Origin: Candidatus Zixiibacteriota bacterium
Lineage (GTDB): Bacteria > Zixibacteria > MSB-5A5 > GN15 > FEB-12
Length of the DNA: 38,830 bases
Direction of reading: 5' to 3'
Assembly (NCBI GenBank): GCA_034003725.1
Contig: JAVEYB010000005.1
Coordinates: 1 to 38,830 of the forward strand
The translations under genes were made by a program, and so were the position numbers. Below, one piece after another: positions 23,254 to 36,945 of the stretch (the stretch's first letter is position 1; each line of letters opens with the position of its first letter). The notes below the pieces were generated by a model. The model made no database searches, was not told the origin of the DNA, and was given only the letters and a program-made list of their open reading frames with translations.

Positions 23254-25887
23254 TCATACTTTGACTCGTCGTAGCCTGAGGGCATTGGCGACCACTGACA
23301 CCGAACTGAAGCTCATGGCTGCAGCTGCGAGGATGGGGCTGAGCAGTATCCCAAAGAATGGATACAACACGCCTGCCGCGATTGGTACGCCAGCCGAGTT
23401 GTACACAAAAGCCAGAAACAGGTTTTGCTTGATGTTGCGAATCGTGGAGCGACTAAGTTTTCTTGCCCGTACGATACCCCGGAGGTCACCTTTTACCAGT
23501 GTAACCCCCGCGCTTTCCATCGCCACATCAGTACCGGTTCCCATTGCAATGCCCACCTGCGCCTGGGCCAGTGCTGGAGCGTCGTTGATTCCGTCACCGG
23601 CCATTGCAACATATTTGCCCTGATCCTGGAGCTTCTTGACAGCGTCGGCCTTTTGATCGGGCAGTACTTCGGCCATCACGTCATCAATTCCCAGTTTTTC
23701 GGCGACAGCCTTGGCAGTGGTCTTACTATCGCCAGTGAGCATCACGACCGCAATTCCTTCATCGTGCAACTGCTTGATCGCCTCTGGAGTAGTCTCCTTA
23801 ATCGGGTCCGCAACGCCAATGAGACCGGCCGCTTTGTTGCCGATCGCCACAAACATAGCCGTCTGACCTTCACGCCGCATCTCTTCGGCTCTGTCCACGA
23901 GAGGCTGAGCATCTACTTCAAGCTGATCGAGCAGAGCACGATTACCCAGGGCGATCTGCTCGCCATCTATCTTCCCGGTAACACCCTTTCCGGTAACTGA
24001 CTCAAAGTTTTCTATATTGCCGGGCGCAACGCCGCGATCTCGGGCGCCCTCGATGATTGCAGCCGCAAGAGGGTGTTCGCTGCCTTTCTCCAACCCAGCG
24101 GCCGCCGCCAGCAGTTTCTGCTCATCCCACGGGTGTTCAGCATGGACTGTTACGAGCTTGGGTTTGCCGAGGGTGAGAGTCCCGGTCTTGTCGACGACCA
24201 GCGTATCAACTTTCCTTAGTACCTCGATTGCCTCGGCGTTTTTGAATAGCACACCAACGGAGGCCCCTTTTCCGCTTGCAACCATTATAGACATCGGAGT
24301 TGCCAGTCCGAGTGCGCAAGGACAGGCAATGATGAGTACCGCCACGGCGTTGATCAATGCATGAGTCAGCCTGGGATCAGGTCCGACCAGCGACCAGACT
24401 ACGAAGGTAATAATCGCAATCGCAATAACCGCCGGAACAAAGTAGCCCGAGACAACATCAGCCATTTTCTGGATGGGTGCTTTACTTCGCTGGGCATTTG
24501 CGACCATCTGGACGATTTGAGATAGAAGTGTATCCGCGCCGACTTTTTCTGCCTCGATAACTATCGAGCCAGTCCCGTTCACGGTGGCACCGATAACCTT
24601 TTCGCCGGCACTCTTCTCTACCGGGATAGGCTCACCTGTAATCATCGATTCATCGACAGAACTATTTCCTTCGCTGACAATTCCGTCAACCGGAACTTTT
24701 TCGCCAGGACGAACGCGCAATTTATCGCCGATCTGCACCTTTTCGAGTGGAACATCTTCCTCGGATCCGTCCGAATTGACTCGCCGGGCAGTCTTGGGGG
24801 CTAAACCCAGCAGCGCTTTGATCGCGGCTCCGGTTTGACTTCTAGCCCTAAGCTCAAGGACCTGGCCAAGCAGCACCAAGGTCACGATCACCGCGGCAGC
24901 CTCGAAGTACACGCCGACCTCGCCGGACACGTCGCGAAAGGCATCAGGGAATATACCCGGAAACAGCGCGGCAATGAGGCTGTAGACATAGGCGACGCCG
25001 ACGCCTAGCCCAATAAGTGTGAACATGTTTGGACTTCGATTGACAACCGACTGATAGCCGCGGACGAAGAACGGCCAACCGCCCCAGAGAACAATGGGCG
25101 TGGCGAGGACGAGTTCAAGTATGGTTAGCATGCGCGCACTGGCCAGTGTCTGAAGCCAGTCATGGATACCGGGAATCCACTCACCCATGGCAACGAGCAA
25201 GAGCGGTACTGATAAGATCGCGCAGACCCAGAAGCGTCTCGTCATGCTTCGAAGTTCGGGATTGTCTTCTTCTTCCGCTGTGACGCTGCGAGGCTCAAGC
25301 GCCATCCCACATATGGGACAGTTGCCCGGACTATCCTGGACTATTTCCGGGTGCATCGGACACGTATACTCGGTCTTGGTTGGCTGAAGAGTCGGAGTCT
25401 CCGGTTCGAGAGCCATACCACACTTGGGGCAATCGCCCGGCCCCTGTTGTCTTATCTCCGGGTGCATGGGGCAGGTATAGGTGGCCTTGCCAGCAGCGGA
25501 ATCACTGGAATCGACCTGTTTGTTGTCTTGGCGGTGTCCATGTCCGGCATGGCCCGGGTGTTCGGCAGCATGGCCCGGATTCGTTTTCGACTGGTTCAAG
25601 TACTTTTCCGGGGCAGCCTGGAACTTGTCTCGACATCCTGTCGAACAGAAGTAGAACTCACGGTCATTGTGCTTGCCAGAGTGAGCCGTTTCGGCAGTAA
25701 CTGTCATGCCGCACACCGGGTCCTTCAACTCTTTGTCATCTCGGTCTTCCGAGTGTGCCGTTTCGTACTTCCTCTTACAATGGTCGCTACAGAAGTAAAT
25801 CGACTCACCGTTAAGCGACAGTCGATGGGCGGTCTCTTCTTCGACAGTCATGCCACATATCGGGTCTCTATGAGTTCTATCAGACAT
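23254..25887 (-). CDS. copA: Cu(I)-exporting P1B-ATPase with two YHS and two heavy-metal-binding modules
   Basis: ATG 25887 follows GAGGAG by 7 nt. The 877-residue protein begins with two YHS domains (about 7-46 and 55-97), a His-rich linker and two CPMHPEI...CPxCGMALEP modules (138-163 and 174-200), rather than CxxC HMA domains. The catalytic core is complete: TGEP (417-420), CPC (522-524), the phosphorylated D566 in DKTGTLT, an HP motif (SEHPLA) and [10 protein letters not shown]. The last helices contain YN and MSFSS, the P1B-1 pattern for Cu(I). It exports cytoplasmic Cu(I). It is the last gene of a nine-gene leftward operon with a sigma-54 promoter at 29.7 kb. Confidence 0.94.
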
Positions 25888-25944
25888 TGTCAATCTCCTC
25901 GCTTCATCCTTTTCCTCACCGCGTATACTACCGCTCCCCGAGTT

Positions 25945-26306: not shown

Positions 26307-27443
26307 TCAATCCTCGATGCCCATCGCATGACCCTCCCTGACACACCTGCACCAGACACAGGTGCAATCCTCATGCGTGCATTCGCGGTCCTTCACTTTG
26401 CTTACATAGTGACGTCGTGCCATTCCCGAGAATAACCATTTGCTGAAAGACATCTGGTAGTGGTGGTTCAGGATTCTTGAAGGTTCATGCCGGCTCAGCC
26501 TTCGTGCCAACACACCATATCCGCGCTGCCCCAGCCGCTCGAACAGGAATCTGTTAGCGAGCGAGGCTCTCAAAGCGGGACGGAGATGAGCTTTCCATTG
26601 CTCATTGTAGTCGGTGCCATTGATTAAGCATTGTGCCGCGATGTACCCGGATCGAATCGCGTAGCGCATACCGAATCCCCAAAGATAGTCCTGAAATCCG
26701 GCCGCTTCACCGATATACGTCTTGCTGTTGCGAACTTGACTCCGGCGCATGAAGAAATTGCCAAAGCCTCCAAATGGACGAGAGTCGGAAAGGTTTAAAC
26801 CGAGCCTTGCTAAAAAGAATTCAAGACAGGCATTACGGTAGGCGTCGGAGTTGTGAAAATCTCTATACAAAACAGAGGCCATAGTCCCCTTCCCGTTGTG
26901 AACAAGAAGATACGCATACCCTTTGGGGGCCAATGTGTCGTCGAATACCATCGCTGCAACATCATCGTGGCTCGTTTCAAATGTCACGCCGGCTGCCAGA
27001 ATATCAGCACCCTTCGGACCGGTTGCCACAATGGCCTCGCCCTCAAACTTGTCGATTCTTTTATTGAAAACAATTTGGACTCCTTGTTGTTCAGCCTGAC
27101 GTCTTAGGCTCTGATCGAGTGTGCCACCGGCGCTGCCCCTCCTAACCAGGTAAAAGGCCGGCTGGCTGGATACTAATGACAATTCCTCACCGTCGGGAGT
27201 GAATAGCACTCCATTGCTGACCGGTACGCATTCACAATCCGGCTGTAAACCGTATGAGCGTAATTCTGCTAGTACATCAGAGTCGGAACTCCAGTTCTCC
27301 AGTCCCTGAAAGTCGTTGTGGAACCGGAATCCTACATCTGAGTGTTGCTCACACACTGTGACGGCATATCCTCTGCGTGCCAAAGTAATAGCCGCCGTCA
27401 ATCCGGCCGGACCGGAACCGACTATGGTTACTGCGTCTCTCAT
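26307..27443 (-). CDS. FAD-dependent oxidoreductase with Cys-rich tail
   Basis: The protein (about 378 residues from ATG 27443) opens with a Rossmann FAD motif (VGSGPAGLTAAITLARRGYAV). It resembles the geranylgeranyl-reductase/PHBH-like flavoprotein family, including the GEAAGFQDYLWGFGMRYAI segment that closes the FAD site. The C-terminus carries a cysteine cluster, ECTHEDCTCVWCRCV, suited to metal binding. The start is chosen because the Rossmann motif begins there; upstream codons to 27509 overlap the previous gene. It is embedded in the copper operon, so oxidation or reduction of a metal or thiol is possible. Substrate is unknown. Confidence 0.8.
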   Translation of the reverse strand: MRDAVTIVGSGPAGLTAAITLARRGYAVTVCEQHSDVGFRFHNDFQGLENWSSDSDVLAELRSYGLQPDCECVPVSNGVLFTPDGEELSLVSSQPAFYLVRRGSAGGTLDQSLRRQAEQQGVQIVFNKRIDKFEGEAIVATGPKGADILAAGVTFETSHDDVAAMVFDDTLAPKGYAYLLVHNGKGTMASVLYRDFHNSDAYRNACLEFFLARLGLNLSDSRPFGGFGNFFMRRSQVRNSKTYIGEAAGFQDYLWGFGMRYAIRSGYIAAQCLINGTDYNEQWKAHLRPALRASLANRFLFERLGQRGYGVLARRLSRHEPSRILNHHYQMSFSKWLFSGMARRHYVSKVKDRECTHEDCTCVWCRCVREGHAMGIED

Positions 27444-27493
27444 ACTATATCCGCTACTGTCTTTGGCATAACCCTCATTAATGCTGTTGAATG

Positions 27494-27769
27494 CTATTTG
27501 CCCGCGCACCGATCGCCCGTCCGGGCGTTAAAGAAGTTGTACAGGGGTACGAATACGAGGGCTATATATACTCCGTACAAAATCGTCTCTACGAGGCCGA
27601 TGAAGAAGGTCGTCCACGTTAGCCAGTGAAAACCGGGGAGAAGAGCTTCCCAGGCACTGTGCATGGCATATTCGTGGAATATCAGCCCGTATATAACGCA
27701 TAGGATATACGAACCCGCTAGGAAAATGCTGACAGAAAACGCTACCGGCTTGAAACACAACTTGTTCAT
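27494..27769 (-). CDS. DUF5676-like small membrane protein
   Basis: The 91-residue protein from ATG 27769 has two membrane helices (about 10-32 and 50-80), with HxxY and WxxL in the loop and the tail GxxxALVFVPLYNFFNA. This is the general pattern of DUF5676 proteins, which often accompany copper operons. An AAAGGTGA ribosome-binding site precedes it. Function is not known. It lies between the 55-residue Cys/His-rich peptide and the FAD enzyme in the operon. Confidence 0.75.
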   Translation of the reverse strand: MNKLCFKPVAFSVSIFLAGSYILCVIYGLIFHEYAMHSAWEALLPGFHWLTWTTFFIGLVETILYGVYIALVFVPLYNFFNARTGDRCAGK

Positions 27770-28186: not shown

Positions 28187-28603
28187 TTATGCACTCGCCG
28201 GATGTATCTCGAGTACAGCGAGAACCTCCTTTAGGCGCGCACGAACCTCTTCTGCTACGGGGCCAAGAGCGGTATTGCCGACAATACTCAGACTAGTCAC
28301 CGGATCCACCGCGGCTACCATGCAGGCGCCTTCTTCGATCTCATAGACAATGACATTACACGGCAGCAACAACCCGAGTTCTATTTCCTCTGATAATGCC
28401 TGGTAGGCCAGAGGCGGATTGCAGGCGCCAAGAATCCGGTACCTCCGGAAGTCGATGTCGAGCTTGTTCTTCAGAGTTTCCTGGACATCGATATCACTCA
28501 AAACTCCGAAACCTTGATCCTTAAGTGCGTTGATGGTTTGCGACACGACCTTGTCGAACTCACCGTCCACCCGCGTTCTAATCCCATATTCGGACGTAGA
28601 CAT
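28187..28603 (-). CDS. DUF302-domain protein
   Basis: ATG 28603 follows AGGAG by 8 nt, giving 138 residues. The sequence has the DUF302 pattern: an N-terminal FDKVVSQTINALKDQGFGVLSDIDVQ, then RYRILGACNPPLAYQAL and ELGLLLPCNVIVYE. The two conserved cysteines (ACNPP and LPCN) could bind a soft metal or heme. Proteins of this family recur in copper and sulfur gene clusters, function unproven. It lies between the TRASH-coiled-coil and SHOCT genes. Confidence 0.88.
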   Translation of the reverse strand: MSTSEYGIRTRVDGEFDKVVSQTINALKDQGFGVLSDIDVQETLKNKLDIDFRRYRILGACNPPLAYQALSEEIELGLLLPCNVIVYEIEEGACMVAAVDPVTSLSIVGNTALGPVAEEVRARLKEVLAVLEIHPASA

Positions 28604-28646
28604 GCTCTTCACTCCTATTCACTTTTCCTGACTAACTCCAGAGCAG

Positions 28647-29144
28647 TTAATCGGAAGTTGCTTTCATTGGTTCCACCGATGACTCAGTCACAGACAAAAC
28701 GAATCTGCAGACACCGGCATGGACCGCCATCTTCTTCTCAATTGCATCCATCATTCTGCGGTGATCACTCAGGGCCTTTCGCAGTCCCTCCAGCCCACCT
28801 GATGCGGATATCTGATCGAGATGCTTCGACAACTCAGTATTGTCACGTTCCAGGGTCTCGAATGATTCCTTCAGGTTGCGGACGATATGAACTAGCTCAG
28901 TGGCACTTCTGCTCGTAATGTCAGTGTCGATCGAACGCTCAGCAACTTGGGTATGTGAGTGTGCTTTCACCGCATAATCTCCGAATAGTGATCGAGCCAC
29001 CGCCGTATAGTGCGCCGGGTCACGATGGAACTCCTTCTCACACAAAGGACAGCATACAAGGTACTCGTGGCCGTCTCGCTTGACGGAGTTCTGTGCTTTT
29101 GGCCTCGTTACAATCTTCCCGCATGTAATGCATCTGTTCATCAT
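28647..29144 (-). CDS. TRASH/YHS-type metal-binding protein with helical C-terminus
   Basis: The 165-residue protein starts with a TRASH-like zinc-finger module (residues 2-45): CITCGK...YLVCCPLCEKEFHRDPAHY, four or more cysteines plus histidine. Residues about 85-160 are helical, with a coiled-coil-like region (ESFETLERDNTELSKHLDQI). Two ATGs (29144 and 29141) fit the GAGG site equally. Its metal domain is paralogous to the small TRASH protein at 29940-30110. Membership of the copper operon suggests it senses or buffers Cu(I) and links this to a partner through the helical tail (inference). Confidence 0.8.
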   Translation of the reverse strand: MMNRCITCGKIVTRPKAQNSVKRDGHEYLVCCPLCEKEFHRDPAHYTAVARSLFGDYAVKAHSHTQVAERSIDTDITSRSATELVHIVRNLKESFETLERDNTELSKHLDQISASGGLEGLRKALSDHRRMMDAIEKKMAVHAGVCRFVLSVTESSVEPMKATSD

Positions 29145-29201: not shown

Positions 29202-29657
29202 TTAATGGTCGTGATTATGCTGGCCGTCTGCTTCGGACTTTGCGGAGTCCGCCCCCATCATACCAGGCATGCCGCCGGAGTGCGTCAGTGACATCATATT
29301 CTGACACATGCTTCGCTGTTCGCTCATGTTCTCATGCATCTGAGTCATCATGTCATGATGCTTCTGCATTTCCGCCTTCAGGGCTTTCATGTCGTCCATC
29401 TTCATCATCTTCTCAAAGTGGGACTGCAGGTCGTCGAATTCGCTCGACATCATCTTACAGTGCTTTGACATATCGCCCATCATGTTGCCCATCTTCATCA
29501 TCATCCCTTCACCCATCATCCCGAAATGCGCAGTACTGTCGTCCTTGTTCATGGAGGAATGATCGTGATCGCCGCCCATCATCTGGGCCGCGGCAAAGGA
29601 TGCGAGTCCAAGGGTCAACGCGATTACCATTACTAACATCAAGCGATTCTGTCTCAT
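29202..29657 (-). CDS. Exported Met/His-rich metal-binding protein
   Basis: ATG 29657 follows AAGGAG by 7 nt. The 151-residue protein has a signal peptide (cleavage near SFAAAQ). The mature part holds more than twenty methionines in clusters (MMKMGNMMGDM, MMKMDDM, GMPGMMG) and His-rich ends (DHDHSS and HNHDH). Met-rich periplasmic proteins bind Cu(I) or Ag(I). It has no recognised catalytic motif. It is the first gene of the long copper operon and would therefore be the product made first after induction from the sigma-54 promoter 38 nt upstream. Confidence 0.82.
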   Translation of the reverse strand: MRQNRLMLVMVIALTLGLASFAAAQMMGGDHDHSSMNKDDSTAHFGMMGEGMMMKMGNMMGDMSKHCKMMSSEFDDLQSHFEKMMKMDDMKALKAEMQKHHDMMTQMHENMSEQRSMCQNMMSLTHSGGMPGMMGADSAKSEADGQHNHDH

Positions 29658-29694
29658 CGTTAACTCCTTCATTTCGGTTTCTGCTCACATATTA

Positions 29695-29711
29695 AGCAAT
29701 AGCCATGCCAA
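29695..29711 (-). promoter_or_regulatory. Sigma-54 promoter of the copper operon
   Basis: On the minus strand the site reads TTGGCATGGCTATTGCT, matching the -24/-12 consensus YTGGCACG-N4-TTGCW at all but one position. The GG and GC are exactly ten bases apart. Transcription would begin near 29684, giving a leader of about 27 nt before ATG 29657. Confidence 0.8.
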
Positions 29712-29802: not shown

Positions 29803-29832
29803 AGAATATTCTTCATTATCGTGGACTATTCT
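29803..29832 (-). promoter_or_regulatory. 30-bp dyad, putative enhancer site A
   Basis: Half-sites AGAATATTC (29803-29811) and GACTATTCT (29824-29832) are inverted around 12 nt. The centre is about 108 bp upstream of the -24 element, the usual place for a sigma-54 enhancer-binding protein. Two similar sites lie at 30689 and 36916. Confidence 0.72.
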
Positions 29833-29869
29833 AATCTAATACTGTGAAGGCAACCAGAAGTAAAGACCG

Positions 29870-29905
29870 AGCCCCCGTGCGTCTCACTATTCACACACGG
29901 GGGCT
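29870..29905 (-). terminator. Strong hairpin after the PII-TRASH operon
   Basis: AGCCCCCGTG and CACGGGGGCT form a perfect 10-bp stem with a 16-nt loop, 34 nt beyond the stop of the small TRASH gene. On the minus strand it is followed by CGGTCTTTAC, only moderately U-rich. It also insulates that operon from the enhancer site of the next one. Confidence 0.5.
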
Positions 29906-29939
29906 GGGGGGAGGGGGCGAGGAGGGTGTATGCAGATTG

Positions 29940-30110
29940 TCAATGTCTGGGGTGTTTGCTCTTGCTCTTTCGGATATACTTCTCCGGATCCTTCTCAAAC
30001 TCGGACTGGCACATGGGACAGCATGCGAGATAGGTGTTGCCGTCCAATTCGATTGTCATGTGTGCCTTATTCCGATTCACCGGTTTGTCACAGGTTATGC
30101 AGCGGTTCAT
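29940..30110 (-). CDS. Small TRASH-domain metal-binding protein
   Basis: ATG 30110 follows GGAG by 6 nt, giving 56 residues. The protein is almost entirely a TRASH/YHS-like module: CITCDK...YLACCPMCQSEFEKDPEKY. It closely parallels the N-terminus of the protein at 28647-29144, so the two are paralogues. The tail is Lys/His-rich. It is 38 nt downstream of the PII-like gene and probably co-transcribed. A Cu(I) or Zn buffering or sensing role is inferred. Confidence 0.82.
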   Translation of the reverse strand: MNRCITCDKPVNRNKAHMTIELDGNTYLACCPMCQSEFEKDPEKYIRKSKSKHPRH

Positions 30111-30148
30111 AGTCCTCTCCAATCTTTATCCGCCCGATTTGGCGGTGT

Positions 30149-30517
30149 TCACGGTTTGCCAGTTTCATCCGTTGGTGAGTCAAGCGTGAATTCACCTTCC
30201 TCACCTGAGCGAATCTTGATAGCTCTCTCGATGTCGCTGATGAAGATGACACCGTCGCCCTTTGCTCCCGTGCGGGCAAGGCCAAGGAGCGTATCTACAA
30301 TGCAATGGGCGTCACTCTCGCGGCACACAATTTCCAGTTTGTAAACCATTGAGTAGTTGGTAACGTAGTTGAGTGACAGTTCACTCGCTTCAGGATCGGC
30401 CAGGGCGCCAATACCTTCCACCGGGATCACAGACATCGCCTTCACCCCGATTGCTTTCAGCCCGTGCACGATGTCGTCCATCTTGGATCTGCGGATGTAT
30501 GCCTTAATCTCTTTCAT
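30149..30517 (-). CDS. P-II family protein in the copper island
   Basis: ATG 30517 follows GGAG by 8 nt and gives 122 residues, close to the usual PII length of 112. The fold signature is clear: KEIKAYIRRSKMDDIVHGL at the start, EIVCRE, and the B-loop ARTGAKGDGVIF, with V in place of the usual lysine. The T-loop (about 38-55) lacks the GlnB tyrosine. An ATG at 30550 without a ribosome-binding site is less likely. It is expressed from a sigma-54 promoter with a TRASH protein, so metal or nucleotide sensing rather than nitrogen control is inferred. Confidence 0.83.
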   Translation of the reverse strand: MKEIKAYIRRSKMDDIVHGLKAIGVKAMSVIPVEGIGALADPEASELSLNYVTNYSMVYKLEIVCRESDAHCIVDTLLGLARTGAKGDGVIFISDIERAIKIRSGEEGEFTLDSPTDETGKP

Positions 30518-30560
30518 GACGCTTGCTCCGTCCTTACTTTTTTCGCTCATTCGTGTGTGA

Positions 30561-30577
30561 TGCAACTGCAATGCCAA
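30561..30577 (-). promoter_or_regulatory. Sigma-54 promoter of the PII-TRASH operon
   Basis: The minus strand reads TTGGCATTGCAGTTGCA, with GG and GC ten bases apart and a full TTGCA -12 box. It deviates from consensus at two -24 positions. The expected transcript start is near 30550, 33 nt before the PII start codon. Confidence 0.75.
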
Positions 30578-30688
30578 CTCAGCATGCAACTCCCCAGAAA
30601 ACCGGCATCCGTCTCAAAGACAATAGAATAAAATGCCGCATGCGTCCACATCATGTCGGCCGGCTGATCTCAAACGACTAAGTGGCGA

Positions 30689-30718
30689 AGACTATTCATC
30701 GAATTCAGAGAATATTCT
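30689..30718. promoter_or_regulatory. 30-bp dyad, putative enhancer site B
   Basis: AGACTATTC and GAATATTCT flank 12 nt in inverted orientation; one base in the left half deviates from the AGAATANTC pattern. The centre is about 128 bp from the leftward -24 box and about 149 bp from the rightward one, so one site could serve both operons. Confidence 0.72.
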
Positions 30719-30849
30719 ACGAATTACTTCTCGGGTGATCAGACACCAGCTGTACGAGCTACCAACAGAAAGAGCATGCCGCCCTCTAAGCCACTATGAG
30801 CCATCGGGCTGTGAACAAAGTACACATTCAAAATCCAATCTGCCCGTAT

Positions 30850-30866
30850 TTGGCATGGCATGTGAT
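30850..30866 (+). promoter_or_regulatory. Weak sigma-54-like promoter of the methyltransferase operon
   Basis: TTGGCATG matches the -24 box well, but the -12 box is GTGA instead of TTGC, so only GG-N10-GA is present. It would start transcription about 42 nt before ATG 30919. It is reported because of its position opposite the shared dyad. Confidence 0.35.
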
Positions 30867-30918
30867 AACAAATGGTGTGTGAGGCATAATTGTGGAAGAA
30901 ATGTGAAAGGTCGTTTCA

Positions 30919-31632
30919 ATGAATACATTAGCTGTTGGCGGCCTCGGTGGCCAGTGGTTCCTCGCCATACTCATGATAGTACTGGTGAGTTGGTTTTTGT
31001 TCCGATACCTCATACCCCAGAGTTGGAAGGAATGGCGTGCGGCAGGTATCCTGCAGGCTTTCATTATCGCCTTGTACGCGGAGATGTACGGCTTTCCGCT
31101 CACGATCTATATCCTTACCGCATATTTCGGGGTCGATATCCCTTGGCTCCACATGCGAGGGCACCTGTGGAGTTCCCTCCTCGGCCTCGGCGATATTGGA
31201 GCGATGGCCGAGATGGTGCTCGGCTATGCAATCATCTTCGCCGGCATTGGCTTGCTCGCGGCCGGTTGGCGCCAGGTATACAAGGCTCAGAAACAGGACA
31301 AGCTCGTAACAGACGGTCTCTACAGGTATGTCAGGCATCCGCAATACACCGGGATCTTCATAGCTGTTCTCGGGCAGCTCCTGCATTGGCCGACATTGCT
31401 CACTCTAGTCCTGGCGCCGTTGATTGTCTTGATGTACTGGCGGTTGGCTGTAAAGGAAGAACGAGAGATGCTTAAGAAGTTCGGTGCAGAGTACGCCGCG
31501 TACACAGCCAAAACGCCACGATTCATCCCAAAAGGCAACGCCTGGCGATCGCTCATGCGCGCAACCAAGGAAACTGAAGAGGAGCAGGACGCCGCTGCCA
31601 GACCGGTCCAAGACGGTAGAGGCGATCTTTAA
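30919..31632 (+). CDS. Isoprenylcysteine/phospholipid methyltransferase-family protein
   Basis: The 237-residue membrane protein has five or so helices and the C-terminal ICMT/PEMT methyltransferase signature. This comprises LVTDGLYRYVRHPQYTGIF, the ligand-binding RHPxY, and KEEREMLKKFGAEYAAY, the conserved EE. These enzymes use S-adenosylmethionine to methylate membrane-embedded acceptors. ATG 30919 follows AAAGG. It is co-directional with the next gene, 30 nt downstream, a SAM-binding spermidine synthase-like protein. Such methyltransferases occur in metal-resistance islands, but the substrate is unknown. Confidence 0.87.
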   Translation: MNTLAVGGLGGQWFLAILMIVLVSWFLFRYLIPQSWKEWRAAGILQAFIIALYAEMYGFPLTIYILTAYFGVDIPWLHMRGHLWSSLLGLGDIGAMAEMVLGYAIIFAGIGLLAAGWRQVYKAQKQDKLVTDGLYRYVRHPQYTGIFIAVLGQLLHWPTLLTLVLAPLIVLMYWRLAVKEEREMLKKFGAEYAAYTAKTPRFIPKGNAWRSLMRATKETEEEQDAAARPVQDGRGDL

Positions 31633-31662
31633 CGGCCACGCTATTCAAAGAGATCGGGAAAA

Positions 31663-34002
31663 ATGGACTTTCGGAAAAATACGGCACTGCGCGCATCACT
31701 GGTTGTATTCATAGCCTCAATGCTCGTCTGGCTGATGGAGCTGACTCTGCCGAGAGTCTATTCTCTCCTGTTTGACTACCACTTTACGTTTCTCTCGATT
31801 TCTCTAGCTCTTTCCGGTTTGGGGTTGGGTGCCGGAGTCTATCACGTTTGGTCAAAACATGAGCGACGGAAGCCTGTTTCCCTCGTGTTGTCGATGTTGT
31901 TGCTGGGTACGGCAACAGTGCTATTTCTCGTCCTGATTTCCACTCAAATCACGTTGCTGATCAATATCTATGTGGTTGTGGGGTTGTCGATAGTACCCTT
32001 CGCGGCATGCGGTGCGATTTTGGCCCACGCCTTCAAGGCGCATTCGGGAAAGGCATCAATTTTGTATGCGGTTGATCTTGCCGGAGCCCTGGTGGCAATT
32101 GGCCTCTACGTGATATCCGCACCGCTGGGAGCTCTGTTCCTGCTACTTCTGTGCGCCTTTGTTCTCGTCATTCTGATTCCAATCCTGGTAAGGACCCACC
32201 GCCAGCTACTAGCGTGGTCCCAGGTTGTGTGGATTCCGATTTTGGCCCTGCTCTTGCTCGCGGCCGGAACGTCTTACTGGCAACCCCGTATTGCCCTGCA
32301 ACCGGGTCAACACAAAGAGATGTTTCATATGCAACAGCATCCCGGACGCAACGGTGAAGTTGTCGCCAGCGAGTGGAGCAGTTTCGGACGAACCGACCTG
32401 CTTCAAAGTAAAAGTGAGCCGGACCGAATGGTGTTCTTTACCGACGGCTCCGCCGGATCTTCAATGTTCCGATTCAACGGCGACTACTCCGACACATCGA
32501 ATACTGCGGTTCAGATGCTGAAGTACTTCCCGGCGTTTTCCGCGCTTTCCCTGATTCCACCCGCGGAGAAGCAGAGTGCTCTGATTATTGGCCCTGGCGG
32601 TGGTCGCGACATTCACTTGGTGCGGCTGGCTGGATATGAGAAGGTTGATGCGGTGGAGGTCAATGGCGATCTCCTGAATCTGGGTCGGACGTTCAGCTGG
32701 TTTAACGGCGGCATTTTCGATGGGGCACTGCCCAACATCAAAGTGATCGAGGCTGAGGGTCGCGGTTTCATAAAGCGGGCGAAACAAAACTATGATCTTA
32801 TTTATCTGAGCATACCGATCATCAAGTCAAGTCGCAGCCCGGAAGCATTTGCCTTGACCGAGAACTTCCTGTTCACGACCGAAGCATTCGATGATTACTT
32901 CTCTCATCTTTCGGAGCGAGGACGGCTGGTGGTAGTTACTCACGACGAAGCTGAGGTATTGAAATTAGTTCTGACGGCAAAGCGAAGTGACTACGCGAAT
33001 AATCATCTATCGCAGTTCTATAATCACTTCTACGCAGCTGGCGCCGGAATGAATCCGTTTGTTGTATTTCACAATACCGCCCTGGACTCCACTTTGGCAA
33101 ACGTGCTGCACGATGTTACGATGGCAACCGGCAACTTCAATCCAGCCGGTGCCTGGTTCCCGTTTATTCAGGCACACGACATTCAGGTCCTTCTTTCCGG
33201 TAATCTCCCTTCGGAGATGCCAATGCTTAGTGAAGAGATAAGGGGGCTGGCTGATGGCACTTATGGTCCGGACGAGTTGGTTTCTGCGAGTAATCTGAAC
33301 CTGTCACCCCCACGGGATGATTCGCCTTTCTTCTACAATTTCTCTCGGGATGTCCCAGCGGTGATTGATCTTGCAATCTTCATCTCCGGCCTATTGATAG
33401 TTTTGGTCATACTGTGGCGGATTCGCTCAAATGGAGTGCGTCGAGCTCACAGTTCAGCGTGGGGCTCCGTCTTTATAGGATTGGGGCTCGCATTTATGCT
33501 GATCGAGGTGCCGTTGGTTCAGCGCTTCACGCTTTTCCTGGGCAGACCTATATATGGGCTGACGATCGTCCTCGGCTCATTGCTTGCCGGTGGTGTGATA
33601 GGTAGTCTCTTCAGCAGCAAAATAGGCGGGTCGCTGCGGTCTTTGCTTGTAGGATCACTGCTCACGGTGGCACTCGTGGGGGCCGCTCATATCTTTGCTG
33701 TGCCGATGCTGCTCGAGGTATTTAAAGGCGAAGTGCTGACTACGAGGATGGCGCTTGCAACCCTTACTCTGGCGCCTCTTGGGATCGCTGCGGCCATTCC
33801 TTTCCCTACGGCATTGCGCTACGCTGGCAGCCTGGGCATGTCGGGCGAGGTTCCTCTGTATTGGTCCCTTAACGGCCTTGCGGCTGTTCTCGGTGCCGCT
33901 ACGGCGGTAGCGGTATCACTGTCCGCCGGTTTTGCGATTGCGATGAGCCTAGCCGTTGTGCTTTACATCCTGGCCGCGATGATGTCGTTGTTTCTCCGGT
34001 AG
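31663..34002 (+). CDS. Membrane-embedded spermidine synthase-like protein
   Basis: The 779-residue protein has three parts. Residues 10-210 form about six membrane helices. Residues from about 235 to 560 are a soluble aminopropyltransferase-like Rossmann domain with LIIGPGGGRDIHLVRLAGY and the acidic strand DAVEVNGD. The C-terminal region (about 570-779) has six to eight more helices. The arrangement matches fused SpeE-like membrane proteins of unknown function. The DxxD-type polyamine site is not obvious, and the loop after strand 4 reads YLSIPIIKSSRSPEA, so polyamine synthesis is doubtful. It follows the methyltransferase gene. Confidence 0.82.
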   Translation: MDFRKNTALRASLVVFIASMLVWLMELTLPRVYSLLFDYHFTFLSISLALSGLGLGAGVYHVWSKHERRKPVSLVLSMLLLGTATVLFLVLISTQITLLINIYVVVGLSIVPFAACGAILAHAFKAHSGKASILYAVDLAGALVAIGLYVISAPLGALFLLLLCAFVLVILIPILVRTHRQLLAWSQVVWIPILALLLLAAGTSYWQPRIALQPGQHKEMFHMQQHPGRNGEVVASEWSSFGRTDLLQSKSEPDRMVFFTDGSAGSSMFRFNGDYSDTSNTAVQMLKYFPAFSALSLIPPAEKQSALIIGPGGGRDIHLVRLAGYEKVDAVEVNGDLLNLGRTFSWFNGGIFDGALPNIKVIEAEGRGFIKRAKQNYDLIYLSIPIIKSSRSPEAFALTENFLFTTEAFDDYFSHLSERGRLVVVTHDEAEVLKLVLTAKRSDYANNHLSQFYNHFYAAGAGMNPFVVFHNTALDSTLANVLHDVTMATGNFNPAGAWFPFIQAHDIQVLLSGNLPSEMPMLSEEIRGLADGTYGPDELVSASNLNLSPPRDDSPFFYNFSRDVPAVIDLAIFISGLLIVLVILWRIRSNGVRRAHSSAWGSVFIGLGLAFMLIEVPLVQRFTLFLGRPIYGLTIVLGSLLAGGVIGSLFSSKIGGSLRSLLVGSLLTVALVGAAHIFAVPMLLEVFKGEVLTTRMALATLTLAPLGIAAAIPFPTALRYAGSLGMSGEVPLYWSLNGLAAVLGAATAVAVSLSAGFAIAMSLAVVLYILAAMMSLFLR

Positions 34003-34038
34003 TTGATACGTTCTGCAATAATTCCTCGTAAGTGAGCC

Positions 34039-34060
34039 ACGATCGCGGTTTCACGATCGT
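34039..34060 (+). terminator. Weak hairpin between convergent genes
   Basis: ACGATCG and CGATCGT form a 7-bp stem with an 8-nt loop, 36 nt past the spermidine synthase-like gene. There is no T-run. The surrounding 174 nt hold no gene I can support. Confidence 0.3.
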
Positions 34061-34176
34061 CCTGATTACTCAAAAGACGAATCGGTACGATAGGAGTAAA
34101 GTCCTTTCGGGATTTCGAGACCATAGCACGTGCGATTCTGATTGACTTGACCAAGACGGTGTCAAGTAGCTGCCTT

Positions 34177-35322
34177 TCAGAACCTGTTTTCATCTAATGA
34201 CGTATCTGCTGAATCGGACGAACCAACTGGACGCTTCACTTCCGCCTTTAGATACCACGGTAAGCGTATCCGTCTGGGTAGCACCAGTATGAATTCGACA
34301 AGCTGACCACTGCGTCGTCGCACTTTTACGCTGCCGAAGTGACTATTCATCGTGTTTATGATATCGACCAGGGAATAGTCTGAGGTATTGCCATTTTCGG
34401 GCCTTGATAGTTCACTTAAGTAATATGAGTGCAACCTGACGTCCTCACTTGAACAACCAACCCAGCGGGAATTGCCGGACTCCCCGGTATAGATAGTTAC
34501 TGTCTCTATCAACTCGTTGTCGCTGGTCATCTCCTCAATAAGGCGGTGCAGGCACCGAAGGAGATGTTTCCGTGCGACACGGCACTTTAGTGGCCTTGAG
34601 GCCAAGCGCGTCTCAAGTCTGATATTGGAACTATTGAGTAACGGGGATGTTTGTTGGGAGCATTCCTCTGCCAGATCATTCAGGTCTATTACAGCCAGGC
34701 GGACTCGTCTTCGCTCGACCAAGCTGATTAAACTGCTGCGTACGTCTGCAATGGACTCCGTCTGAGAGCGTATGACATGGATGAACTCACGAGCACCAGG
34801 GTGGTCTCCAATCGACGCTTCCAAAGATATCAGTACTCCTTGAATCGATCGGACCGGAGACTTAAGCGATCGAATTACAGAGCGCGCTACAGAGCCAAAC
34901 TGTGCCATACGTGCATAACCGAGCGCGGTATGCCTCAGTTCAGCCTCTCGCCCAAACAGCCAGCCGCCGACAAAACCAACAACTGGAAATAACAGCACTT
35001 CGATTAGTTGAGCCGATTGGTAAGCCGGGTGCGCCTCCCATGTCATGAGAATGTGCGGTAGGTATACCGCCGCAGGCAATAGCGCCATGAAAATGGCACT
35101 CTTGCGCGATATGGCGTACGCTGCCCACACAATCGGTATGTAATAGAGCCGTTGCAGAATGTTGTGGAGCACGAAGTTCGATGGCGGAAGCAGGTAATGC
35201 AGGATTGTGACAAGTAACACAAGTGCAAACAATAACAGCGGCAATCGTTTGCCTGTCCGGAGGCTAGACTGCGTTTCGTCGACAAATCCGGGTGTCTGTT
35301 CGTTGCTGTTGCCGGGTTGCAT
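34177..35322 (-). CDS. Membrane histidine kinase-like protein lacking the phosphoacceptor histidine
   Basis: The 381-residue protein has four N-terminal membrane helices (about 28-120), resembling DUF4118-type sensors. A soluble region with the DHp layout of NtrB-like kinases follows. Where the H-box should read HE(I/L)xNP, it reads IRSLKSPVRSIQG, without histidine. The ATPase region is recognisable only by general spacing; the N-box and G-boxes are degenerate. It is probably a pseudokinase or signal adaptor. It is the last gene of a four-gene operon behind the sigma-54 promoter at 36.8 kb, so it may feed back on the enhancer-binding protein of the regulon. Confidence 0.7.
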   Translation of the reverse strand: MQPGNSNEQTPGFVDETQSSLRTGKRLPLLLFALVLLVTILHYLLPPSNFVLHNILQRLYYIPIVWAAYAISRKSAIFMALLPAAVYLPHILMTWEAHPAYQSAQLIEVLLFPVVGFVGGWLFGREAELRHTALGYARMAQFGSVARSVIRSLKSPVRSIQGVLISLEASIGDHPGAREFIHVIRSQTESIADVRSSLISLVERRRVRLAVIDLNDLAEECSQQTSPLLNSSNIRLETRLASRPLKCRVARKHLLRCLHRLIEEMTSDNELIETVTIYTGESGNSRWVGCSSEDVRLHSYYLSELSRPENGNTSDYSLVDIINTMNSHFGSVKVRRRSGQLVEFILVLPRRIRLPWYLKAEVKRPVGSSDSADTSLDENRF

Positions 35323-35356
35323 GACGAGTTCTCACCTCACCTTCAGTCGCGAGAAA

Positions 35357-35812
35357 TCATGTCGAAAACTCAACGAAGCCTCGCATCTTCCTTTTCAGGC
35401 ATGTGAAGTCCAGGCGTCGTACTTCTCCTCCGCTGAATTCAACTTCCACTCGCTGGCCTATCGGTAACTCTACTCTCTTGTTTAAGGCTGGAAAGACAAT
35501 CGCTTCGTTGCACTCCCCGCCCGTGTTTCGCAGGAAGATCAGTTTTGCCGGAACACCCGCGGCGAACTGAATACGGTCGGGAACGAATGCCGTATCGACT
35601 ATAATCGCGGCGGTCTGAATGGCTGGTTCAACCGCGTCCCATTGCTTGAGATCTGACTGTGCCGTGCGCCGCGAGATCATCATCGGCACAGCGATGAGCC
35701 CTACTAATAGCAGTATTCCTATTGCTTTCGGCCATTGTCGATCCATAACGGTTCTTCCTAGTGTCAGGGTGAGTATGATTGCCACGGTTATTGTAGCTGC
35801 AGTCCACTCCAC
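35357..35812 (-). CDS. Membrane-anchored cupredoxin-like protein
   Basis: GTG 35812 follows AAGGAGG by 6 nt, giving 151 residues. Two N-terminal hydrophobic segments (1-20 and 29-46) lead to a cupredoxin-1-type beta barrel (about 65-150) with FVPDRIQFAAGVPAKLIF and NTGGECNEAIVFPAL. The C-terminal loop has FTCLKRKMRGFVEF, with C and M at copper-ligand positions. A histidine ligand of a type 1 site is not obvious, so copper binding may differ. It lies between the CPMHP protein and the kinase-like protein. Confidence 0.82.
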   Translation of the reverse strand: MEWTAATITVAIILTLTLGRTVMDRQWPKAIGILLLVGLIAVPMMISRRTAQSDLKQWDAVEPAIQTAAIIVDTAFVPDRIQFAAGVPAKLIFLRNTGGECNEAIVFPALNKRVELPIGQRVEVEFSGGEVRRLDFTCLKRKMRGFVEFST

Positions 35813-35851
35813 GGCCGTCCTCCTTTCTGCGCTGGTACAATGGCGGTTGCG

Positions 35852-36289
35852 CTACTTGTTGGATGAATTCGCCTCCTCTGCGTCTGAACAGCCTTCGTGG
35901 GGGTCACGACTGGACATCACAGATGGATTCGGATCACCGCAGCAGCCACCCATAGACTGTGGCTGTAACAAGCTTTGCTTCGTATAGGTAAGATTCTGTC
36001 GGAACTGATTGAGCCGCTCTGTCATTTCTCCCATGTTGTCGGAGCTAAGAATTAAATTCACTTCGTCTTCACATGCCTGAAGAAGCCTCAGCATGTCTTG
36101 TTCACTACCGCTGCCTGGCTGCGTCTCGGAAGAAGCATCTTTTTGAGGGTGCATCGGACATTCGTCAGCCGTCTGGATAGTGACAGCGGCCGATTCCGGA
36201 TCACCGGTCGCATCGGTGCTTACTGCCGATATGGTCAGCAGTGCCAACAGTGCCAGGGCTCCGCTCCAGATAAGTGCCTTCGTTTTCAT
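35852..36289 (-). CDS. Exported protein with a CPMHP motif
   Basis: The 145-residue protein has a signal peptide (1-24) and the sequence ECPMHPQKD, the core of the heavy-metal-binding modules in the CopA N-terminus. A helical central part follows (about 60-110), then MGGCCGDPNP and a Cys-containing acidic tail. It could bind Cu(I) or another soft metal in the periplasm. It is 25 nt downstream of the sorting-domain gene and 39 nt upstream of the cupredoxin gene. Family not recognised. Confidence 0.72.
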   Translation of the reverse strand: MKTKALIWSGALALLALLTISAVSTDATGDPESAAVTIQTADECPMHPQKDASSETQPGSGSEQDMLRLLQACEDEVNLILSSDNMGEMTERLNQFRQNLTYTKQSLLQPQSMGGCCGDPNPSVMSSRDPHEGCSDAEEANSSNK

Positions 36290-36314
36290 CGCTTGTCATC
36301 CTGTTTTTAGGGTT

Positions 36315-36746
36315 CTATTTCACTAACATCATTTTTCTTACCGCCCAATTGTCATCAGCCAGCAAGACCAAAAAGTAAAGTCCACTGGGCACTACCTGCG
36401 CCTGGTCGTCGGTGCCATCCCAGTGTGCCGTATACGACCCTGGTTGCTGACGTCGGTCTACCAGCCGCCTTACCTCCCGTCCCAGAATATTGTAGATTTT
36501 GACTTCAACATCCGCCTTGTCAGGCAGATCGTAGTCGAGATTGGTTGACACGTTGAAGGGGTTTGGGTAGTTCTGGCTGACTTCAAAGTACTGTGGCACA
36601 ATACCACTGGACATTGCCACATTCGGCGATAGTGCACCATGCCCCGACTCGCTACTGTAGGCCGTATTTGACAGTGAAGTAGCGATCCAGCCAACAATAC
36701 TCGCGGCCAAGAGCAGCTTTGCAGTCATTTGTGTCGGACTTCTCAT
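36315..36746 (-). CDS. Small exported protein consisting mainly of a sorting domain
   Basis: ATG 36746 follows GAGG and lies 32 nt downstream of the expected sigma-54 transcript start; upstream codons to 36854 would run through the promoter. The 143-residue protein has a signal peptide (about 1-27), a short spacer, and then a complete C-terminal sorting domain: NYPNPFNVSTNLDYDLP, KIYNILGREVRRL, HWDGTDDQ and SGLYFLVLLA. Almost nothing precedes the domain, so it is either a free domain used as a competitor or tag, or a decayed surface protein. It heads the four-gene operon. Confidence 0.8.
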   Translation of the reverse strand: MRSPTQMTAKLLLAASIVGWIATSLSNTAYSSESGHGALSPNVAMSSGIVPQYFEVSQNYPNPFNVSTNLDYDLPDKADVEVKIYNILGREVRRLVDRRQQPGSYTAHWDGTDDQAQVVPSGLYFLVLLADDNWAVRKMMLVK

Positions 36747-36787
36747 TGTCTCAATCCTCGTCGAGTTTCCCACTACTCGATTTGATA

Positions 36788-36804
36788 GGCAACCCGCGTG
36801 CCGA
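36788..36804 (-). promoter_or_regulatory. Sigma-54 promoter of the kinase-like operon
   Basis: The minus strand reads TCGGCACGCGGGTTGCC, with the GGCACG and TTGC boxes intact and GG-N10-GC spacing. The predicted start is near 36778, 32 nt before ATG 36746. Confidence 0.75.
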
Positions 36805-36915
36805 AGCAGAGCACTATTGTGCCAGCTTGGTCTACTCGCATAGAAGCAAACCACTTACAAGGACTACGCAATACTATGTGATGATAGATGAGCCGTTTGA
36901 CTGTGATGCTGTTGA

Positions 36916-36945
36916 AGAATAGTCTATAAAGTAGGCGATTATTCT
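36916..36945 (-). promoter_or_regulatory. 30-bp dyad, putative enhancer site C
   Basis: AGAATAGTC (36916-36924) and GATTATTCT (36937-36945) are inverted around 12 nt. The centre is about 129 bp upstream of the -24 box. Confidence 0.72.

What the first reader, a model, noticed from the sequence alone, without database searches (positions are those of the whole stretch)
29803..36945. Shared 30-bp dyad AGAATANTC-N12-GANTATTCT upstream of each sigma-54 operon
Sites at 29803-29832, 30689-30718 and 36916-36945 have the same half-sites and exactly the same 12-nt spacer; only one half-site base departs from the pattern. Each is centred 108-149 bp upstream of a -24 box, the normal position for a bacterial enhancer-binding protein. 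No other full copy was seen in the window. I do not recognise this as the site of a known regulator.
Basis: seen in the sequence. Interest (0 to 1): 0.85.

Follow-up and report, generated by a model that had tools for sequence, protein, structure and literature searches.

The report
Copper-island enhancer for NtrC-type activator
The repeated 30-bp sequence is real: it is a pair of docking sites, most likely for one copper-responsive regulator, that switches on several metal-resistance operons together, and the same site sits in front of the same genes in related uncultured bacteria (Zixibacteria).

Summary
The three dyads are present at the stated coordinates and are far beyond chance. Genome-wide at ≤2 mismatches there is only one more copy, C5:47022-47051, 8 kb past the window, between a divergent CusCBA operon and an operon encoding a membrane histidine kinase (HK) and an NtrC-family response regulator (RR). 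All four strong σ54 promoters have the dyad centre 109 or 129 bp upstream of the -24 GG. In related genomes, 28 of 28 HK-RR orthologs carry the same element upstream. A model built only from relatives recovers two of the four own-genome sites and a second Cus/HK-RR locus. In relatives it also finds sites before the same genes as here: the Met/His-rich–DUF302–FAD operon, PII, the operon encoding the FlgD-domain protein and pseudo-kinase, and Cus. Each "half-site" is itself a palindrome (TTGA-AGAATATTCT-TCAA); the 30-bp dyad is two such sites 20 bp apart, and relatives also use 10, 21-22 and 30-33 bp. Best explanation: the tandem enhancer of a σ54-dependent, copper-type two-component system, like CorSR or ZraSR but with a different membrane sensor and its own DNA site. 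Binding and the metal signal are inferred, not shown.

The parts
29803..29832 (.). Enhancer S1: two palindromes, 29803-29812 and 29823-29832 (AGAATATTCT / GGACTATTCT), before the operon starting at 29672(-)
   Evidence: relatives-only model R1 finds it at E 0.056 genome-wide; orthologous operons in G008 and G045 carry the site
30689..30718 (.). Enhancer S2: two palindromes, 30689-30698 and 30709-30718, between divergent PII-like (-) and ICMT-like (+) genes
   Evidence: not found by R1 in the own genome, but the same divergent ICMT/PII pair with a site occurs in G045 (L250), and PII with a site in G008 (L240)
36916..36945 (.). Enhancer S3: two palindromes, 36916-36925 and 36936-36945, before the operon encoding the FlgD-like secreted protein, cupredoxin and pseudo-kinase
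   Evidence: not found by R1 in the own genome, but a site occurs before the orthologous operon in G032 (L241)
29696..29710 (-). sigma-54 -24/-12 box TGGCATGGCTATTGC, 109 bp from S1 centre
30562..30576 (-). sigma-54 -24/-12 box TGGCATTGCAGTTGC, 129 bp from S2 centre
36789..36803 (-). sigma-54 -24/-12 box CGGCACGCGGGTTGC, 129 bp from S3 centre
30851..30865 (+). Weak sigma-54-like box TGGCATGGCATGTGA, 149 bp from S2 centre, before the ICMT-like gene; G045 has CGGCACACTATTTGA at 150 bp before its ICMT ortholog
29202..29672 (-). Lead gene of the S1 operon: Met/His-rich secreted protein, putative periplasmic metal binder
   Evidence: no Pfam family at gathering cut-off
28647..29144 (-). YHS-domain protein, S1 operon
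   Evidence: below Pfam cut-off
28187..28612 (-). DUF302 protein, S1 operon
26307..27509 (-). FAD-dependent oxidoreductase, S1 operon
23254..25893 (-). P1B-type ATPase with YHS and heavy-metal-binding domains and a CPC motif (Cu+-type), same strand and probably same transcription unit
30149..30517 (-). P-II-like protein; start moved from TTG 30589 to ATG 30517 because 30589 lies upstream of the predicted sigma-54 start site
29940..30110 (-). 56-aa Cys-rich YHS/TRASH-like ORF after PII
30919..31632 (+). ICMT/PEMT-like membrane methyltransferase, divergent from PII
36315..36854 (-). FlgD-Ig/Por-secretion-tail protein, first gene behind S3 (true start probably downstream of GTG 36854)
35852..36289 (-). 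Cys/His-rich secreted protein, S3 operon
35357..35812 (-). Cupredoxin-like protein, S3 operon
   Evidence: just below Pfam cut-off
34177..35322 (-). Degenerate sensor kinase (pseudo-kinase) homologous to the HK, S3 operon

Best explanation
The dyads are tandem enhancer sites for the NtrC-family response regulator encoded about 11 kb to the right of S3 (C5:48265-49614, outside the window), the partner of the membrane HK at C5:47207-48268. Each 30-bp element holds two 18-bp palindromes (TTGA-AGAATATTCT-TCAA), 20 bp centre to centre, so two RR dimers can sit side by side on the same face of the DNA. Proposed mechanism: the HK senses periplasmic or membrane copper (or silver) and phosphorylates the RR. 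The RR oligomerises on the tandem site, loops to sigma-54-RNA polymerase about 109 or 129 bp away, and opens the promoters of its own operon, CusCBA, the Met/His-rich-YHS-DUF302-FAD(-P-type ATPase) operon, PII/ICMT and the cupredoxin/pseudo-kinase operon. Shown by sequence: the sites, their conservation, sigma-54 boxes, spacing, gene content and the presence of the TCS. Inferred: that this RR binds, that it activates, and that copper is the signal.
For: Genome-wide specificity: four copies at <=2 mismatches, all in this island. The fourth lies between CusCBA and the HK-RR operon and has its own sigma-54 box at 129 bp. RR domains are REC + sigma-54 AAA+ + Fis-type HTH. All 28 non-redundant orthologous HK upstream regions carry the palindrome, and in leave-one-out scans shuffles reach the best score in at most 2.5% of trials. 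In further families of the class, 10 of 12 HK orthologs with >=42% identity have it against 0 of 12 with <=38%, Fisher p 7e-5. A model built without own-genome sequence (R1) ranks as its top own-genome loci C5:47019 (E 5e-7), the paralogous Cus/HK-RR locus C1:675283 (3.5e-4) and C5:29801 (0.056). In relatives, sites not used to build R1 fall before CusC (G007, G070), the Met/His-rich-DUF302-FAD operon and PII (G008, G045), ICMT (G045) and the FlgD/pseudo-kinase operon (G032). Of 22 activators whose HTH was compared, only this RR and its C1 paralog share the IPRHVL(I/V)YRLKKF helix, and these are the two with the element upstream. Enhancer-promoter distances fall near a helical lattice (85, 105-109, 119, 129, 138, 149), p about 0.005 after collapsing orthologs.
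Against: No binding or expression data. S2 and S3 are not recovered by R1 in the own genome; their support is the window pattern plus orthologous promoters. The sigma-54 boxes before ICMT and CusC are weak, and none was found before the paralog HK. Three loci that keep the HK lack the element (L265 and L270; L130, which matches L270 at 100%). The spacing test used distances picked by eye, and the best-fitting period, 10.75, is at the edge of the range tried. The metal is inferred from gene content only.
Confidence: 0.88

Rival explanations
1. The palindromes are operators of another metal regulator (for example a MerR-, ArsR- or CopY-type protein), and the nearby HK-RR acts elsewhere.
For: The island carries a MerR gene, and palindromes are common operator shapes.
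Against: The sites lie 85-150 bp upstream of sigma-54 boxes, not over a promoter. They follow HK-RR orthologs across the order and class. The MerR gene lies next to MerC, away from the dyads.
Confidence: 0.07
2. The true unit is one 30-bp dyad with a 12-nt spacer, bound by one dimer or tetramer through the outer half-sites only.
For: All four own-genome copies on C5 have exactly this spacing, and the outer halves are the best conserved.
Against: Each half is a conserved palindrome with TTGA/TCAA flanks. In relatives palindromes occur singly or at 10, 21-22 and 30-33 bp, and the own paralog locus uses 33 bp.
Confidence: 0.12
3. The similarity is inherited by recent promoter duplication within the island, or is chance in AT-rich DNA, with no regulatory role.
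For: S1 and S4 have similar spacers (TCATTATCGT / TCAATATCGA), so duplication may have spread the element.
Against: Shuffles never give three copies, and the element is conserved at homologous promoters in other genera and families.
Confidence: 0.02

Closest known systems
CorSR of Myxococcus xanthus (PMC3707914)
   Same: Two-component system with a sigma-54-type RR (PF00072, PF00158, PF02954) that induces a copper operon with a cupredoxin protein, P-type ATPase and its own genes; four putative sigma-54 promoters
   Different: CorS has a signal peptide, one TM segment, a periplasmic sensor and HAMP; this HK has several hydrophobic segments, a weak DUF4118 match and no HAMP hit. The passages read mention no CorR site resembling this element. 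Here the regulon includes CusCBA, PII, ICMT and a pseudo-kinase
ZraSR of Escherichia coli
   Same: sigma-54-dependent NtrC-family RR with upstream binding at zraP and its own zraSR genes; ZraR is among the solved relatives of this RR and second for the HTH
   Different: Zinc/envelope-stress system with very few targets (zraP, zraSR, possibly mgtA). Only generic NtrC-family similarity was measured
CusRS of E. coli
   Same: A two-component system controls the CusCBA efflux pump (own knowledge)
   Different: CusR is an OmpR-family RR acting with sigma-70 (own knowledge); this RR has a sigma-54 AAA+ domain and a Fis-type HTH

Membership tests
sigma-54 enhancer-binding site (bEBP UAS) | Palindromic sites upstream of a -24/-12 promoter at roughly 80-200 bp | tested here: met
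   109, 129, 129 bp in the window and 129 bp at the fourth copy
sigma-54 enhancer-binding site (bEBP UAS) | Tandem dimer sites on one DNA face | tested here: met
   Two palindromes 20 bp apart; other spacings 10, 21-22, 30-33 bp in relatives. This is sequence geometry only; dimer binding was not tested
sigma-54 enhancer-binding site (bEBP UAS) | Bound by the cognate activator | not testable with these tools
   Only co-occurrence and co-conservation
NtrC-family response regulator (group I bEBP) | REC + sigma-54-interaction AAA+ + Fis-type HTH | tested here: met
   PF00072, PF00158, PF02954 on P0001
NtrC-family response regulator (group I bEBP) | GAFTGA loop and phosphorylatable Asp in the REC domain | tested here: met
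   ESELFGHTKGAFTGAVRD and LLLSDIRMPKMDG read in P0001
CorSR-type copper TCS | Periplasmic-sensor HK with HAMP | tested here: not met
   HK has hydrophobic segments, HisKA, HATPase_c and a weak DUF4118 match, no HAMP hit
CorSR-type copper TCS | Copper-dependent induction | not testable with these tools
   Only gene content: Cus, CPC P-type ATPase, YHS, cupredoxin; multicopper oxidase in a relative
CusRS | OmpR-family RR | tested here: not met
   RR is NtrC-type

The most novel reading that the evidence does not exclude
A separate class of sigma-54 copper-sensing systems in Zixibacteria. The metal is sensed inside the membrane by invariant His/Cys residues of the HK (H25, H44, C48). The RR reads phased arrays of TTGAAGAATATTCTTCAA palindromes. 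A co-regulated pseudo-kinase (34177-35322) that keeps much of the sensor but has lost the phospho-accepting His and ATP site gives feedback.
Probability: 0.3. Interest if true: 0.68.

Novelty: new member of a known kind. Interest (0 to 1): 0.55.

Why it matters
It gives a lineage known largely from metagenomes a defined regulon, with the site, the likely activator, the promoters and a conserved target list all named from sequence. It adds a second copper-type case, after CorSR, where σ54 and an NtrC-family activator rather than CusR/CopR-type regulators would run a Cus pump. The 18-bp palindrome can be tested directly with a purified RR.

Tried and rejected
Scanning relatives with the 30-bp pattern at 2 mismatches gave mostly AT-rich noise among distant genomes, so it was replaced by an ortholog-derived profile. 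Weak R1 hits (E >0.003) in L248, L249 and L252-L258 mostly fall in coding DNA or beside unrelated genes and were set aside. The genome-contig scan returned mainly generic kinases; only L130 was a close relative. D. vulgaris σ54 and DAP-chip papers mention no copper system. Literature searches found no such site described. A MerR-type operator was considered and rejected.

Full report
OBSERVATION. The three dyads are exactly where stated, at 0, 1 and 0 mismatches, and no other match at ≤3 mismatches exists in the window (shuffles mean 0.20, never 3). In the 3.73-Mb genome the same pattern at ≤2 mismatches adds one site only, C5:47022-47051, 8 kb beyond the window end; eight further sites at 3 mismatches are scattered. 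Scaling the window shuffles to the genome would predict about 19 at that level, so those eight carry no signal.

THE UNIT. Each reported half-site AGAATATTCT is itself a palindrome. Upstream regions of 28 non-redundant orthologs of the neighbouring kinase were analysed by EM with a palindromic matrix. The consensus is TTGA-AGAATATTCT-TCAA with strong 10-bp phasing between hits (spacings 10, 20, 30, with 21-23 and 32-33 variants). All 28 regions score ≥12 bits against 0.4% of shuffles; 27 of 28 score ≥15 against none; in leave-one-out scans shuffles reach the best score in at most 2.5% of trials. The 30-bp dyad is therefore two 18-bp palindromes 20 bp apart, whose inner flanks make up the spacer consensus TCAATATTGA. 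A paralogous locus in the same genome, C1:675283, has AGAATATTCT repeated at 33 bp and is missed by the 30-bp pattern.

THE ACTIVATOR. The fourth copy lies between a divergent CusCBA-type operon (OEP, YHS, CusB with HMBD, AcrB-family CusA, DUF2231/YHS) and an operon of a 353-aa membrane HK and a 449-aa RR with REC, σ54-activation and Fis-HTH domains. The HK-RR promoter has its own σ54 box TGGCATACTCATTGC at 129 bp, so autoregulation is likely. The genome has about 24 σ54 activators. Of the 22 whose HTH was compared, only this RR and the RR of the C1 Cus locus (73% identical overall) carry the IPRHVL(I/V)YRLKKF helix, and these are the two with the palindromes upstream.

CONSERVATION OF THE REGULON. 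A sequence-only model from 15 relatives' sites, with no own-genome sequence, was run on the own genome. It returned C5:47019 (E 5e-7), C1:675283 (3.5e-4), C5:29801 (0.056) and then chance-level hits. S2 and S3 do not reach E 10 there. Run on 80 genomes of the order, its hits away from HK genes were inspected. They lie before CusC (G007, G070), before the Met/His-rich–YHS–DUF302–FAD operon and before PII (G008), at the divergent ICMT/PII pair and the Met/His-rich–DUF302–FAD–EamA operon (G045), and before the operon encoding the FlgD-domain protein, pseudo-kinase and P-type ATPase (G032). These are the same transcription units that S1, S2, S3 and S4 precede here. R1 hits at E ≤0.01 occur in 26 of 36 genomes with the HK ortholog and 4 of 44 without (counts read; tested), though the model was partly trained on such sites. 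An independent check on the rest of the class gives 10 of 12 orthologs with ≥42% identity having a palindrome ≥15 bits, against 0 of 12 with ≤38% (p 7e-5).

GEOMETRY. Distance from site centre to the -24 GG is 109, 129, 129 and 129 bp for the four strong own-genome promoters. Weaker boxes lie at 149 bp (ICMT), 85 bp (CusC) and 83 bp (paralog CusC). Relatives give 85, 95, 105-106, 119, 125, 129, 138 and 150 bp, with 136-139 for most HK promoters. A circular test for helical phasing gives p about 0.005 after collapsing orthologs. I treat it as supportive only, because boxes were chosen by inspection and the fitted period, 10.75, lies at the edge of the range tried.

FUNCTION OF THE TARGETS. The gene content points to copper or silver: CusCBA, a P1B ATPase with a CPC motif, YHS and heavy-metal-binding domains, DUF302, a cupredoxin-like protein, Met/His-rich secreted proteins and, in a relative, a Tat-type multicopper oxidase opposite the S1-type operon. 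Silver or mercury as co-inducers cannot be excluded; a MerR/MerC pair lies nearby.

SENSOR. All 22 aligned HK orthologs keep H25, H44, R46, C48 and YIPI. The two His and the Cys are candidate metal ligands near the membrane; this is inference. The S3 operon encodes a homolog of this HK (E 3e-14) that keeps HY and R..YIPI but has Arg for the phospho-accepting His and has lost the ATP-binding boxes; the ortholog in G032 shows the same losses. A regulated pseudo-kinase would fit a feedback role.

SOURCE ORGANISM. L130, titled Candidatus Zixiibacteriota, is identical over 2,245 bp to L270 from G109, a member of the window's class, so the window is most likely from that phylum.

NOVELTY. As a kind, a bEBP tandem enhancer with an NtrC-type TCS is well known, and CorSR is a copper example (PMC3707914). 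I found no description of this site, regulon or sensor type in the held library, which lacks most subscription journals. I file it as a new member of a known kind.

Noticed in passing
window 34177-35322 (-); L241:1181-2368 (-): Conserved pseudo-sensor-kinase homologous to the HK next to CusCBA: sensor region largely kept, H-box His replaced by Arg, ATP-binding motifs lost, in an operon behind dyad S3.
   Followed up: partly
G000:C1:664000-683000 (L103): Second complete CusCBA + HK-RR locus in the same genome (HK 68%, RR 73% identical) with palindromes at 33-bp spacing; cross-talk between the two systems is likely.
   Followed up: partly
window 29940-30110 (-): Unlisted 56-aa Cys-rich YHS/TRASH-like ORF directly after the PII-like gene.
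   Followed up: no
window 30149-30517 (-): P-II-like protein conserved in the copper regulon of other genera; its role there is unknown.
   Followed up: no
window 36478-36499: Single palindrome-like hit (11.3 bits) inside the coding region of the FlgD-like protein, probably chance.
   Followed up: no
L240:3985-7022 (G008) and L250:2187-5259 (G045): In relatives a gene set with a Tat-signal multicopper oxidase and a haem-binding-domain protein (both called in L240) sits opposite the Met/His-rich-DUF302 operon; none was noticed at that position in the window.
   Followed up: partly
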